64,000 nucleotides of DNA from Geminisphaera colitermitum TAV2. Lineage in GTDB: Bacteria; Verrucomicrobiota; Verrucomicrobiia; Opitutales; Opitutaceae. Position 1 is the stretch's first letter; each line of letters opens with the position of its first letter. Shown here piece after piece: positions 36,976 to 62,004 of the stretch. The translations under genes were made by a program, and so were the position numbers. The stretch is from contig NZ_ABEA03000157.1 in NCBI RefSeq assembly GCF_000171235.2, forward strand, positions 1 to 64,000. The letters run 5' to 3'. The notes beneath the pieces were generated by a model. That model was given only the letters and a program-made list of their open reading frames with translations. It was not told the DNA's origin and searched no databases.

Positions 36976-37081
36976 GGAGGGCGGGTCTCCCGACCCGCCG
37001 ACGGTGCGAAGCACCGGCCCTTCCGTTTTCCCGGATGGGCGCGGCTACGCCGCGTCTGGCGGGTCGGGAGACCCGCCCTCC
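36976..37081. repeat. palindromic repeat: 24-bp perfect arms
   Basis: Left arm 36976-36999 starts GGAGGGCGGGTCTCCC; right arm 37058-37081 is its exact complement. The inner part holds the word CGGATGGGCGCGGC. Relatives at 57991-58185 (interrupted) and 61955-62004. May act as an rpoN terminator. Confidence 0.9.
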
Positions 37082-37111
37082 ACCCTTGGCTGCCATCTGC
37101 GTGAAAGGGCA

Positions 37112-37128
37112 GGGGGGGGGGGGGGGGG
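37112..37128 (+). repeat. 17-G run upstream of the propeller gene
   Basis: 71 bases before the start codon at 37200. Confidence 0.9.
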
Positions 37129-55930: not shown

Positions 55931-57784
55931 TTACCGGGCGTCGGCGTAGCGGGCGATGGAGGTCACAGTGTAAGTTTCCTCGGCACTGCCGATCTTGACT
56001 TGCACGGTGTCGCCCACGCGCTTGGTGAGGAGGCCCTGGCCGAGCGGGGTCTTGTAGGCGATGATGTTCTTCTCCGGGATGCTGTCCCAGGCGCCAAGAA
56101 GGGTGTAGGTGGCGGTCTTGCCGGTGGAGCCGATCTTGAGTCCGACGATATTGCCCACGCCGATGCTGTCCGTCGGGGCGTCCTTGAAATCAGTGATGCG
56201 GGCGCGGCTGAGTTCTTTTTCGATGAGGGCCTTTTGCGCCATGAGAACCTGCTGGTCCTGCTTGGCCATCTTGTACTCGGAGTTTTCCTTGAGATCGCCG
56301 TGCTCGCGGGCGGTGGCGATGGCTTTGCTGTTCTCAGGGATTTTTTTGGAAACGATGGTTTCGTATTCCTCGCGCTTGCGTTCGTAGCTCTCGCGGGAGA
56401 CGAGGAGTTGTTCTTCCTTGCCTTCGGAGTCGCCGGTGAGGAGCGACTGGATGGAGGGGAACAGTTTGATGAAGCGGGCGAGGAGGGATTTTTTGGTAAG
56501 GTCTTCGAAGCCTTGGTTGAGCAGGAGGGTGTTGGCGAGGTCGCGCGCGGTCTCGGTGTCGGCGGCGGCAAGGAGGTCGGGGATGAGTTCGGTGTCGTCG
56601 CTGAGGATTTCGGCCAGCGGGATGCGGCGCGCGCTGGCGGCTTGCAGGGCTTCGTAGTCGATGGCGTAGAAGACGGAGCTGAGGAGGCGGGGGGTCACGA
56701 GGTCGCCGAGGATTTTGGCGAATTTCTTCGAGTGGCGGTTCTTGACGATCCACAGGAGAACGGGGGCGCGGAGGTTTTGCTCGATCTGCCAGCGTTTGAG
56801 CGAGTCGGCCAGCTCTTCGGTGTGACCGTTCTCAACGAGGAAGTTGATGCACTCGGTGGTGAACTTGCCTTGCGAGATTTTGAGGAGGTTGAAGATGATG
56901 TCGCGGTGCTCGATGGGGAAGGTCTCTTTGATGAGGTCGAGGAGGTGGGCTTGGAACTGGACGGGGATTTTTTCGACGATGTCGGGGATGTCGCGCTGGT
57001 TGGCAATGAGGGAGGATTGCGTGGGGACGAAGGCGTTGGCGTCCACGTCGGGGGCGAGTTTGGCGAGTTCGTCGCGCACGTAGGCGCCGTAGAGGCGTTC
57101 GGCGGGGGTGAGCTGGTTGGAGTCCTTCACGGCGTCGGCAATGCCGGTGAGCACGGTCTTGATGGTCTCGGGGTTGGTGTCCTTTTTGTCGGCGGCGGCA
57201 ACGAGTTCGTCGGCGAGCTTGATGCGGCGGCGGGCGGAACGGGTGCCGTTGAAGAATTCAAGGATTTCGTCTTCGTTGGAGATGGGCGTCTCGCGGATGT
57301 AGTAGCATTCGGTCTTCTTGAGGGGGAGGCCGACGCGGGGGTCTTTGAGGACGATTTTCTTGGCGGCGCTCCACCAGCGTTTAAACTTGTCGGGGCCGAC
57401 GACCTGGGCGAGGACGGATTCGATTTCGATGCCGGTGGCGGCCTGGTTGGGGTAGGCTTCGAGGCCTTCGACGAAGAGTTGGGCGGGGTCCTCGGCGATG
57501 AGTTTGTTGATTTTTTCGGTCTCGGTCTGCTTGCGGACGAGCAGGTGATTGGCCGGGAGAACTTCGAGGGTTTTGACGCAAAACACCGGGTCCATCGGGT
57601 GGCCGGGCTTGCCGGTGAAATCGATAATCAGGCGCTGGGTCGCGGAGTTATAGGATTTGATCTGCCCAAAGCCCCAGCTCGAATGAATGCAATAGGAGCC
57701 GGATTTCATGGCCTCCAGCTTGGTCTTGGCCGTTTTAAGGGACGGGTTTTTGGCGATCAGCGCAGCAACATCTTCCGTAGTCAT
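55931..57784 (-). CDS. GreA/GreB-type transcription elongation factor with long N-terminal extension
   Basis: 617 residues (628 from GTG 57817). The last ~160 are GreA-like: an antiparallel coiled coil (REHGDLKENSEYKMAKQDQQVLMAQKALIEKELSRA) with acidic D/E at the tip (GDLKENSEY), then the FKBP-like end (GNIVGLKIGSTGKTATYTLLG ... GQGLLTKRVGDTVQVKIG). The first ~450 residues are helical, TPR-like, with no known motif. Chlamydial GreA has a similar large extension, so this is a group trait. The factor rescues arrested RNA polymerase by stimulating cleavage of the transcript. Confidence 0.88.
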   Translation of the reverse strand: MTTEDVAALIAKNPSLKTAKTKLEAMKSGSYCIHSSWGFGQIKSYNSATQRLIIDFTGKPGHPMDPVFCVKTLEVLPANHLLVRKQTETEKINKLIAEDPAQLFVEGLEAYPNQAATGIEIESVLAQVVGPDKFKRWWSAAKKIVLKDPRVGLPLKKTECYYIRETPISNEDEILEFFNGTRSARRRIKLADELVAAADKKDTNPETIKTVLTGIADAVKDSNQLTPAERLYGAYVRDELAKLAPDVDANAFVPTQSSLIANQRDIPDIVEKIPVQFQAHLLDLIKETFPIEHRDIIFNLLKISQGKFTTECINFLVENGHTEELADSLKRWQIEQNLRAPVLLWIVKNRHSKKFAKILGDLVTPRLLSSVFYAIDYEALQAASARRIPLAEILSDDTELIPDLLAAADTETARDLANTLLLNQGFEDLTKKSLLARFIKLFPSIQSLLTGDSEGKEEQLLVSRESYERKREEYETIVSKKIPENSKAIATAREHGDLKENSEYKMAKQDQQVLMAQKALIEKELSRARITDFKDAPTDSIGVGNIVGLKIGSTGKTATYTLLGAWDSIPEKNIIAYKTPLGQGLLTKRVGDTVQVKIGSAEETYTVTSIARYADAR

Positions 57785-58016
57785 GTAAAGTCGGGTTTTC
57801 TTGGATGAATTGGTCACTTAAGCGGATCACGGTGTGCGGTGTCAATCCAAGCGGTGAGCGTTGCCAGATTGAGGGAGGGGGGGGAGGGGGGGAGGGGCCG
57901 CCGAGGGCGCGCAGCGTCGGTCCATCTGGAATATCTCAGGCAGAGACGCAGAGAAGAAAACAGCAGGGAGGTTCTAAAAATCCGTTTTTCCGGATGGGCG
58001 CGGCAAAGCCGCGTCT
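57785..58016. other. intergenic region with palindromic repeat
   Basis: No gene. A G8 run (57869-57884 region) and the first half of a palindromic repeat (CGGATGGGCGCGGC, 57991-58016). Confidence 0.6.
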
Positions 58017-58032
58017 GGCGGGTCGGGAGACC

Positions 58033-58165
58033 TATACGCGCTAACATCTTTTCAATCGCCACGCATTTCTTGAGATTATTTCAGCAGAAAACAGCGATTT
58101 TTAGATTTAAAAGGCTGGTTTGAATCAAAAAATGAAGAAAAAAACGAAACATGTTAGCGCGTATA
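58033..58165. mobile_element. 133-bp MITE-like insertion
   Basis: Terminal inverted repeats TATACGCGCTAACAT and ATGTTAGCGCGTATA (58033-58047, 58151-58165) are exact complements. A 12-bp direct repeat GGTCGGGAGACC flanks both ends (58021-58032, 58166-58177). The AT-rich interior has no gene. The empty site exists at 37058-37081 and 61981-62004. Non-autonomous; no transposase in the window. Confidence 0.85.
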
Positions 58166-58198
58166 GGTCGGGAGACCCGCCCTCCCTTTGTTTGCCTT

Positions 58199-58846
58199 TC
58201 ACACCGTGCCGTCGCCGATGGCGGTTTCGTAGCGGCGTTCGGCGTCGGCCTGGCTGCTGATGGAGAGGCGCAGGTCGCGGGCGAGGCCGTCCTTGAGACC
58301 GTAAACCCAGGCATGCACGGTCAGCGGCTGGCCGCGGTCCCACGCGTCATGGATGATGGTGGTTTGCGTGACGTTGAGGGCTTGCTCAATGGCGTTGAGT
58401 TCGCAGAGACGGTCAACGCGGGCGCTTTCGGTGGGGATCTGGTTGAGTTGGGCGGCGTGTTTGTCGCGCACGTCTTTGACGTGGCGCAGCCAGTTGTCGG
58501 CCAGGCCCACGCGGTCGCCGCGCAGTGCCACGCGCACACCGCTGCATCCGTAGTGACCAACGACGAGGATGTGTCGCACTTTTAACAGATCCACGGCGAA
58601 CTGGAGCACGCTGAGGCAGTTCAGGTCGGTCGGCACAACGACGTTGGCGATGTTGCGGTGAACAAAGAGTTCGCCGGGCAACAGGCCCACGATTTCGTTG
58701 GCCGGCACGCGGCTGTCGGAGCAGCCGATCCACAGGTATTGGGGGTTCTGCTGGCGCGACAGACGAAGAAAAAAGTCCGGGTCGGCGGTCCTGATTTTTT
58801 GGGACCAAGCTTGGTTGAGGGCGAAGAGGTGATCGAGTTTTCCCAT
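58199..58846 (-). CDS. beta-class carbonic anhydrase
   Basis: 215 residues. Interconverts CO2 and bicarbonate. Zinc ligands are visible: YLWIGCSDSRVPANEI (Cys, then Asp/Arg pair) and LVVGHYGCSGVRVAL (His, Cys). The text ELFVHRNIANVVVPTD is typical. ATG 58846 (MGKLDHLF) gives the standard start; an in-frame ATG at 58924 would add 26 residues of unlike composition. Cytoplasmic, single gene. Confidence 0.95.
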   Translation of the reverse strand: MGKLDHLFALNQAWSQKIRTADPDFFLRLSRQQNPQYLWIGCSDSRVPANEIVGLLPGELFVHRNIANVVVPTDLNCLSVLQFAVDLLKVRHILVVGHYGCSGVRVALRGDRVGLADNWLRHVKDVRDKHAAQLNQIPTESARVDRLCELNAIEQALNVTQTTIIHDAWDRGQPLTVHAWVYGLKDGLARDLRLSISSQADAERRYETAIGDGTV

Positions 58847-58980
58847 GAGAGGCGCGGTGCGGCCGCGTATGCAGGGCAAAAGCTGATATCCAAATGCCGC
58901 GGAGCGAAAGTCCAAAGCCGACATAGCGGTATCGCTAACAGCAAACAGAACGCAGCGTTAGAATTGCTAACTGTTGCAAA

Positions 58981-61943: not shown

Positions 61944-62004
61944 CATCCGGAAAAACGGATGGGCGGCGCTTCGCGCCGTCGGCGGGTCGGGAGACCCGCC
62001 CTCC
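61944..62004. repeat. palindromic repeat copy
   Basis: CGGATGGGCGGCGC followed by GGCGGGTCGGGAGACC and GCCCTCC (61981-62004): an uninterrupted copy of the repeat at 37058-37081. Confidence 0.85.

What the first reader, a model, noticed from the sequence alone, without database searches (positions are those of the whole stretch)
58021..58177. MITE with empty sites in the same window
A 133-bp element with perfect 15-bp terminal inverted repeats and 12-bp target duplication GGTCGGGAGACC interrupts a palindromic repeat; uninterrupted copies lie at 37058-37081 and 61981-62004. This gives direct evidence of a transposition event targeted to an intergenic repeat.
Basis: seen in the sequence. Interest (0 to 1): 0.7.

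Follow-up and report, generated by a model that had tools for sequence, protein, structure and literature searches.

The report
Palindrome-targeting miniature transposon and its parent
A 133-letter piece of mobile DNA sits inside a palindromic repeat; the same genome holds 17 more copies and the full-length insertion sequence that almost certainly moves it, a relative of E. coli IS186 that lands in GC-rich palindromes.

Summary
The 133-bp element at 58033-58165 has perfect 15-bp inverted ends and a 12-bp duplication GGTCGGGAGACC, inside the palindrome GGCGGGTC-NNNN-GACCCGCC. The genome carries 18 full copies, 15 of them identical; 15 are flanked by identical 12-mers and 17 sit in this palindrome, of which 174 uninterrupted copies remain. 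The same ends bound a 1324-bp insertion sequence (IS): 8 intact, near-identical copies in the same palindromes, encoding an IS4-type DDE transposase, 32% identical to E. coli IS421/IS186. Relatives in many phyla share CATAAGCGCTAAC-like ends and mostly 10-13-bp duplications at GC-rich palindromes. So this is a MITE mobilised in trans by an IS186-like IS: a new member of a known kind.

Two by-products. First, this transposase group, IS186 of K-12 included, keeps a conserved C-terminal domain in the +1 frame (64 of 84 loci), implying frameshifting where the IS4 family is defined as having none. Second, 5 of 8 intact IS copies have inverted instead of direct 12-mers, probably an assembly artefact.

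The parts
58033..58165 (+). MITE, 133 bp, 34% GC, no transposase gene
   Evidence: 18 full copies in the genome; ends shared with the 1324-bp IS
58033..58047 (+). left terminal inverted repeat TATACGCGCTAACAT
58151..58165 (-). right terminal inverted repeat, exact complement of the left
58021..58032 (.). left copy of the 12-bp target duplication GGTCGGGAGACC
58166..58177 (.). right copy of the 12-bp target duplication GGTCGGGAGACC
58017..58032 (+). left part of the interrupted palindrome (GGCGGGTCGGGAGACC)
58166..58185 (+). right part of the interrupted palindrome with its outer flank (GGTCGGGAGACCCGCCCTCC)
37058..37081 (-). uninterrupted target palindrome, second arm of the same composite repeat
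61981..62004 (-). uninterrupted target palindrome

Best explanation
The feature is a MITE: a non-autonomous 133-bp transposon without a transposase gene, moved in trans by the transposase of a 1324-bp insertion sequence in the same genome. That IS is closest to the IS186/IS421 group of the IS4 family. Most likely course: the transposase binds the shared 15-18-bp ends, excises the element by cut and paste, captures a GC-rich palindrome (here mostly GGCGGGTC-NNNN-GACCCGCC) and joins the two ends across a 12-bp stagger; gap repair leaves the GGTC-NNNN-GACC duplication. Shown from sequence: copies, shared ends, duplications, empty sites, target preference, intact transposase gene. Inferred by homology: mobilisation in trans, the cut-and-paste route, and the need for a +1 frameshift to make full-length transposase.
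For: 18 full copies, 15 identical; 15 of 18 with identical flanking 12-mers, 17 of 18 in GGTC-NNNN-GACC; 174 uninterrupted palindromes as empty sites; 8 intact, near-identical copies of a 1324-bp IS with matching ends in the same palindromes; IS4-family transposase above the curated cut-off, DDE domain; relatives in many phyla with similar ends, duplication length and palindromic targets; structural matches to Tn5 transposase for a relative.
Against: Movement was not observed, only inferred. The MITE interior is unrelated to the IS and both MITE ends resemble the IS left end, so it is not a simple deletion derivative. Three MITEs and five intact IS copies lack matching 12-mers, which needs recombination or misassembly to explain.
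Confidence: 0.93

Rival explanations
1. The 133-bp unit is an internal module of the composite palindromic repeat and spread with it as one larger repeat; the flanking 12-mers are simply the repeat's own palindromes.
For: Element and repeat occur together in 17 of 18 cases.
Against: 174 palindromes lack the element; outer flanks differ between copies; a copy sits outside the repeat with its own 12-bp duplication GGCCGGTTGCCC (L011); an unrelated 1.3-kb sequence with the same ends occupies the same position.
Confidence: 0.02
2. The MITE is moved by a different, undetected transposase, and the IS with the same ends is a competitor for the same sites.
For: The MITE interior is not derived from the IS, and movement in trans was not tested.
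Against: 15-18 bp of identical ends, the same duplication length and the same unusual target; the end sequences found in the genome are accounted for by MITE and IS copies.
Confidence: 0.05
3. For the IS copies only: insertion into this palindrome often inverts the 4-bp core on one side, giving inverted rather than direct 12-mers, through a template switch on the self-complementary 12-nt overhang during gap repair.
For: 5 of 8 intact IS copies have GGTCTCCCGACC on the left and GGTCGGGAGACC on the right, while nearly all listed empty sites have one core orientation relative to their flank.
Against: The MITE has the same ends and target yet shows no such flank on the hairpin side (0 of 14, against 7 of 11 for the IS, counted), so it is not a property of the chemistry. 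A 1.3-kb repeat longer than the sequencing reads fits an assembly artefact better.
Confidence: 0.15

Closest known systems
IS186/IS421 (IS4 family) of Escherichia coli
   Same: Homologous transposase (32% identity); about 1.34 kb; ends CATAAGCGCTAAC against TATACGCGCTAAC; duplication in a GC-rich palindrome (K-12 IS186A; GGGGTGCCCCC in PMC12102499); the same +1-frame C-terminal tail.
   Different: Only 32% identity; first end base T instead of C; the element here uses a dedicated genome-wide palindromic repeat and has a MITE. I know of no MITE of IS186, but did not search for one.
IS231 and MIC231 elements of Bacillus cereus group (IS4 family)
   Same: 10-12-bp duplications and the end consensus CAT-------AA--TAA (PMC2266710) fits the relatives' CATAAGCGCTAACTTAA; non-autonomous derivatives (MIC231) moved by a relative are cited there.
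   Different: IS231 is longer (1450-5400 bp) and listed with a single ORF; MIC231 elements are longer cassettes (from memory).
ISRm22 of Sinorhizobium meliloti (IS4 family)
   Same: An IS4-family IS whose nine copies all lie in REP palindromes (PMC1525189).
   Different: Placed in another IS4 subgroup (IS4Sa, PMC2266710) and using another repeat; not compared by sequence here.
MITEs of bacteria with an identified parent IS (e.g. MITEAba12, PMC6382973)
   Same: Short, non-autonomous, inverted ends, target duplication, many copies.
   Different: Different ends, target and host; known here from the title and abstract only.

Membership tests
MITE | Short element without transposase gene, inverted ends, target duplication, several copies | tested here: met
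   133 bp, 15-bp perfect ends, 12-bp duplications, 18 copies
MITE | Shares ends with an autonomous element in the genome | tested here: met
   1324-bp IS with the same 15-18-bp ends
MITE | Is mobilised in trans by that element | not testable with these tools
   Needs a transposition assay
IS4 family (parent IS) | DDE transposase with Y(2)R(3)E(6)K signature; family model match | tested here: met
   YRLRWQIELAFKRLK in the ORF; NF033592 119.2 bits against cut-off 115; DDE_Tnp_1
IS4 family (parent IS) | Target duplication of about one helix turn | tested here: met
   12 bp
IS4 family (parent IS) | Single transposase ORF, no frameshift (hallmark in PMC2266710) | tested here: not met
   Conserved tail in the +1 frame in this IS and in most relatives, IS186 and IS421 included; since IS186 is an accepted member, the hallmark looks wrong for this group, and I file the IS with IS186 rather than under the hallmark
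IS186/IS421 group (parent IS) | Homologous transposase, GCGCTAAC ends, GC-rich palindromic target, about 1.3 kb | tested here: met
   first end base differs (T for C) and no tree was built
REP/BIME (target repeat) | Abundant extragenic palindromes in alternating orientation | tested here: met
   174 palindromes, many as inverted pairs 96-120 bp apart end to end; extragenic position checked only for the sites in the window
REP/BIME (target repeat) | Associated REP-type tyrosine transposase (RAYT) | not tested
   Not searched

The most novel reading that the evidence does not exclude
The whole IS186/IS421 transposase group, insL of E. coli K-12 included, makes its full-length transposase only through a +1 frameshift (ribosomal, or by transcriptional slippage) at a T/C-rich tract. 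The annotated 362-370-aa product lacks a conserved, roughly 60-aa helical C-terminal domain and may serve as a regulator.
Probability: 0.7. Interest if true: 0.6.

Novelty: new member of a known kind. Interest (0 to 1): 0.45.

Why it matters
It is an unusually complete case: a MITE family, its autonomous parent, its target repeat and 174 empty targets in one genome, so targeting can be measured instead of guessed. It shows a lineage-specific palindromic repeat acting as a landing pad for an IS186-type element. The by-product reaches further: IS186 moves often in E. coli laboratory strains, and its transposase may have been annotated without its C-terminal domain, which is directly testable.

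Tried and rejected
Internal-deletion origin of the MITE from the IS: rejected, only the ends match. MITE copies in 140 relatives, one of the same genus included: none, a single 28-bp chance-level hit. Target repeat in relatives: only isolated palindromes with other cores. Promoter in or next to the element: none by consensus. Sequence search against solved structures: no hit. Recombination between IS copies as the cause of the inverted 12-mers: rejected, because the non-standard half does not exist among the listed empty-site halves; assembly collapse remains.

Full report
OBSERVATION. The sequence is as described. The element 58033-58165 is 133 bp, begins TATACGCGCTAACAT and ends with its exact complement, and is flanked on both sides by GGTCGGGAGACC. 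With the element and one 12-mer taken out, the site reads GGCGGGTCGGGAGACCCGCCCTCC, the sequence of the uninterrupted sites at 37058-37081 and 61981-62004; a third lies at 36976-36999. The element lies between two minus-strand ORFs, 55931-57817 and 58199-58924. The end 15-mer occurs exactly only twice in the window.

COPIES. The genome (5.67 Mb, 225 contigs) holds 18 full copies: 15 identical, the other three 98-99% identical. Fifteen of 18 are flanked by identical 12-mers. Seventeen lie in GGTC-NNNN-GACC, with cores TCCC/GGGA or TCCT/AGGA. One (L011) lies in GGCCGGTTGCCC, which is not part of the repeat but has a similar form. One (L006) was inserted into the flanking 12-mer of an older, decayed IS: TATACGCGTTCAAGCC follows its right repeat, and a remnant of the IS lies downstream.

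PARENT. The same search found further end-like matches about 1.3 kb apart. They are the ends of a 1324-bp IS: eight intact copies (seven differing by at most one base, one with a local rearrangement), one copy split by another insertion, and five fragments. Its left end is TATACGCGCTAACATGT and its right end, read inwards, TATAAGCGCTAACATGT. Both MITE ends are of the left type, and the MITE interior (34% GC over the whole element) has no similarity to the IS (59% GC). The IS encodes a 362-aa protein that matches DDE_Tnp_1 and the NCBI IS4-family model NF033592 above its cut-off, with the YREK signature.

TARGET. The palindrome GGCGGGTCNNNNGACCCGCC occurs uninterrupted 174 times in this genome, in many cases as inverted pairs in a 96-120-bp composite with two small hairpins between them. 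It is absent from the only same-genus genome held, and occurs once or twice, with other cores, in 10 of 140 relatives. Intact palindromes fill about 0.06% of the genome, so the clustering of insertions is not chance (10^-91 for 29 of 30). Roughly one site in seven is occupied (inference from the counts).

RELATIVES. A scan of genome contigs gave 80 loci at 31-61% identity. Where boundaries could be found by script, lengths were 1.31-1.47 kb, ends were variants of CATAAGCGCTAACTTAA, and duplications of 8-14 bp were mostly GC-rich palindromes such as GGGGGTACCCCC, GGGGATCATCCCC and GGCCGCGAGGCCC. E. coli IS421/IS186 is a relative at 32%. IS186A of K-12 has these ends and sits in GGGGATCACTCCCC, and a published IS186B insertion duplicated GGGGTGCCCCC (PMC12102499). 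The palindrome preference therefore belongs to the group; what is special here is an abundant repeat that supplies the palindrome. An IS4-family precedent for repeat targeting is ISRm22 in S. meliloti REPs (PMC1525189).

MECHANISM. Shown: copies, ends, duplications, empty sites, intact transposase gene. Inferred: mobilisation in trans, from identical ends, duplication length and target; cut and paste, from IS4-family biology (PMC2266710); staggered joining across the 12-mer.

FRAMESHIFT. The 362-aa ORF of the IS stops shortly after TTTTTTCCCCCTGGGG; entering the +1 frame there gives a 416-aa protein ending GYPPRKRIPHRILIKS. In relatives the +1 frame carries a conserved tail with W-R-E and P-R-K-R motifs. 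A profile of the tail, tested only on loci not used to build it, scored best in the +1 frame in 64 of 84 loci, in frame in 8, in -1 in 5, and weakly or not at all in 7. In several relatives (Pseudovibrio, Sphingomonas, Anaerolineae, and the Acinetobacter plasmid protein WP_178319675.1) the tail is part of one ORF. A model of such an in-frame member has mean pLDDT 89 and places helices in the tail; its best structural matches are Tn5 transposase. The K-12 annotation of insL1 ends before the tail, which is open in the +1 frame after TTTCCCCCCC. PMC2266710 gives absence of a frameshift as an IS4 hallmark. I found no paper in the library that reports this, which does not prove it unknown. From memory only: IS231V and W were described with two overlapping frames.

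ANOMALY. Five of eight intact IS copies have GGTCTCCCGACC on the left and GGTCGGGAGACC on the right. Of 100 listed places where an empty palindrome is read from its GGAGG flank, 99 have one core orientation, and the other is a symmetric site. The hairpin-side half of these IS copies is therefore non-standard: 7 of 11 IS flanks on that side, 0 of 14 MITE flanks (counted). Because the 133-bp MITE never shows it, I think assembly of a 1.3-kb repeat is the cause, but reads are needed. Three MITEs with mismatched 12-mers (L003, L012, L013) look like joined halves of different sites, and contigs C50 and C185 share a MITE-217 bp-IS segment with different outer flanks, as expected from recombination or misassembly at repeats. 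Loss of matching duplications through recombination between IS copies is documented (PMC11708052).

VERDICT. Ordinary in kind, unusually complete, with a frameshift lead that deserves a bench test.

Noticed in passing
L020:1557-2810 (parent IS), L066-L148, L169 (IS186A of K-12): Conserved C-terminal transposase tail in the +1 frame after a T/C-rich tract, across phyla and in E. coli IS186; in a few relatives the tail is in frame.
   Followed up: yes
L031, L033, L035, L036, L038 (IS copies): Flanking 12-mers are inverted instead of directly repeated in 5 of 8 intact IS copies; L037 has a direct repeat in the non-standard orientation.
   Followed up: partly
window 36976-37081 and 61981-62004; genome-wide: Lineage-specific composite palindromic repeat (174 intact palindromes, absent from the same-genus genome); its origin and the machinery that spread it are unknown.
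   Followed up: partly
L032 (C50:19877-22070), L033 (C185:62686-64560), L003, L012, L013: Chimeric junctions at MITE copies and a MITE-217 bp-IS segment present in two contigs with different outer flanks: recombination or misassembly.
   Followed up: partly
L045 (C129:41900-43600): MITE inserted in the flanking 12-mer of a decayed IS copy: the same half-site was used twice.
   Followed up: partly
C176:2884-5675; C207:92636-93562, C71:4291-5217, C207:52085-52485: IS copies interrupted at 1140-1148 and at 924-927 of the IS, apparently by other mobile elements with 9-bp and 4-bp overlaps.
   Followed up: no
window 37110-37128 and 57876-57897: Long G-rich runs near the palindromic repeats; similar runs near other copies such as L014 and L035.
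   Followed up: no
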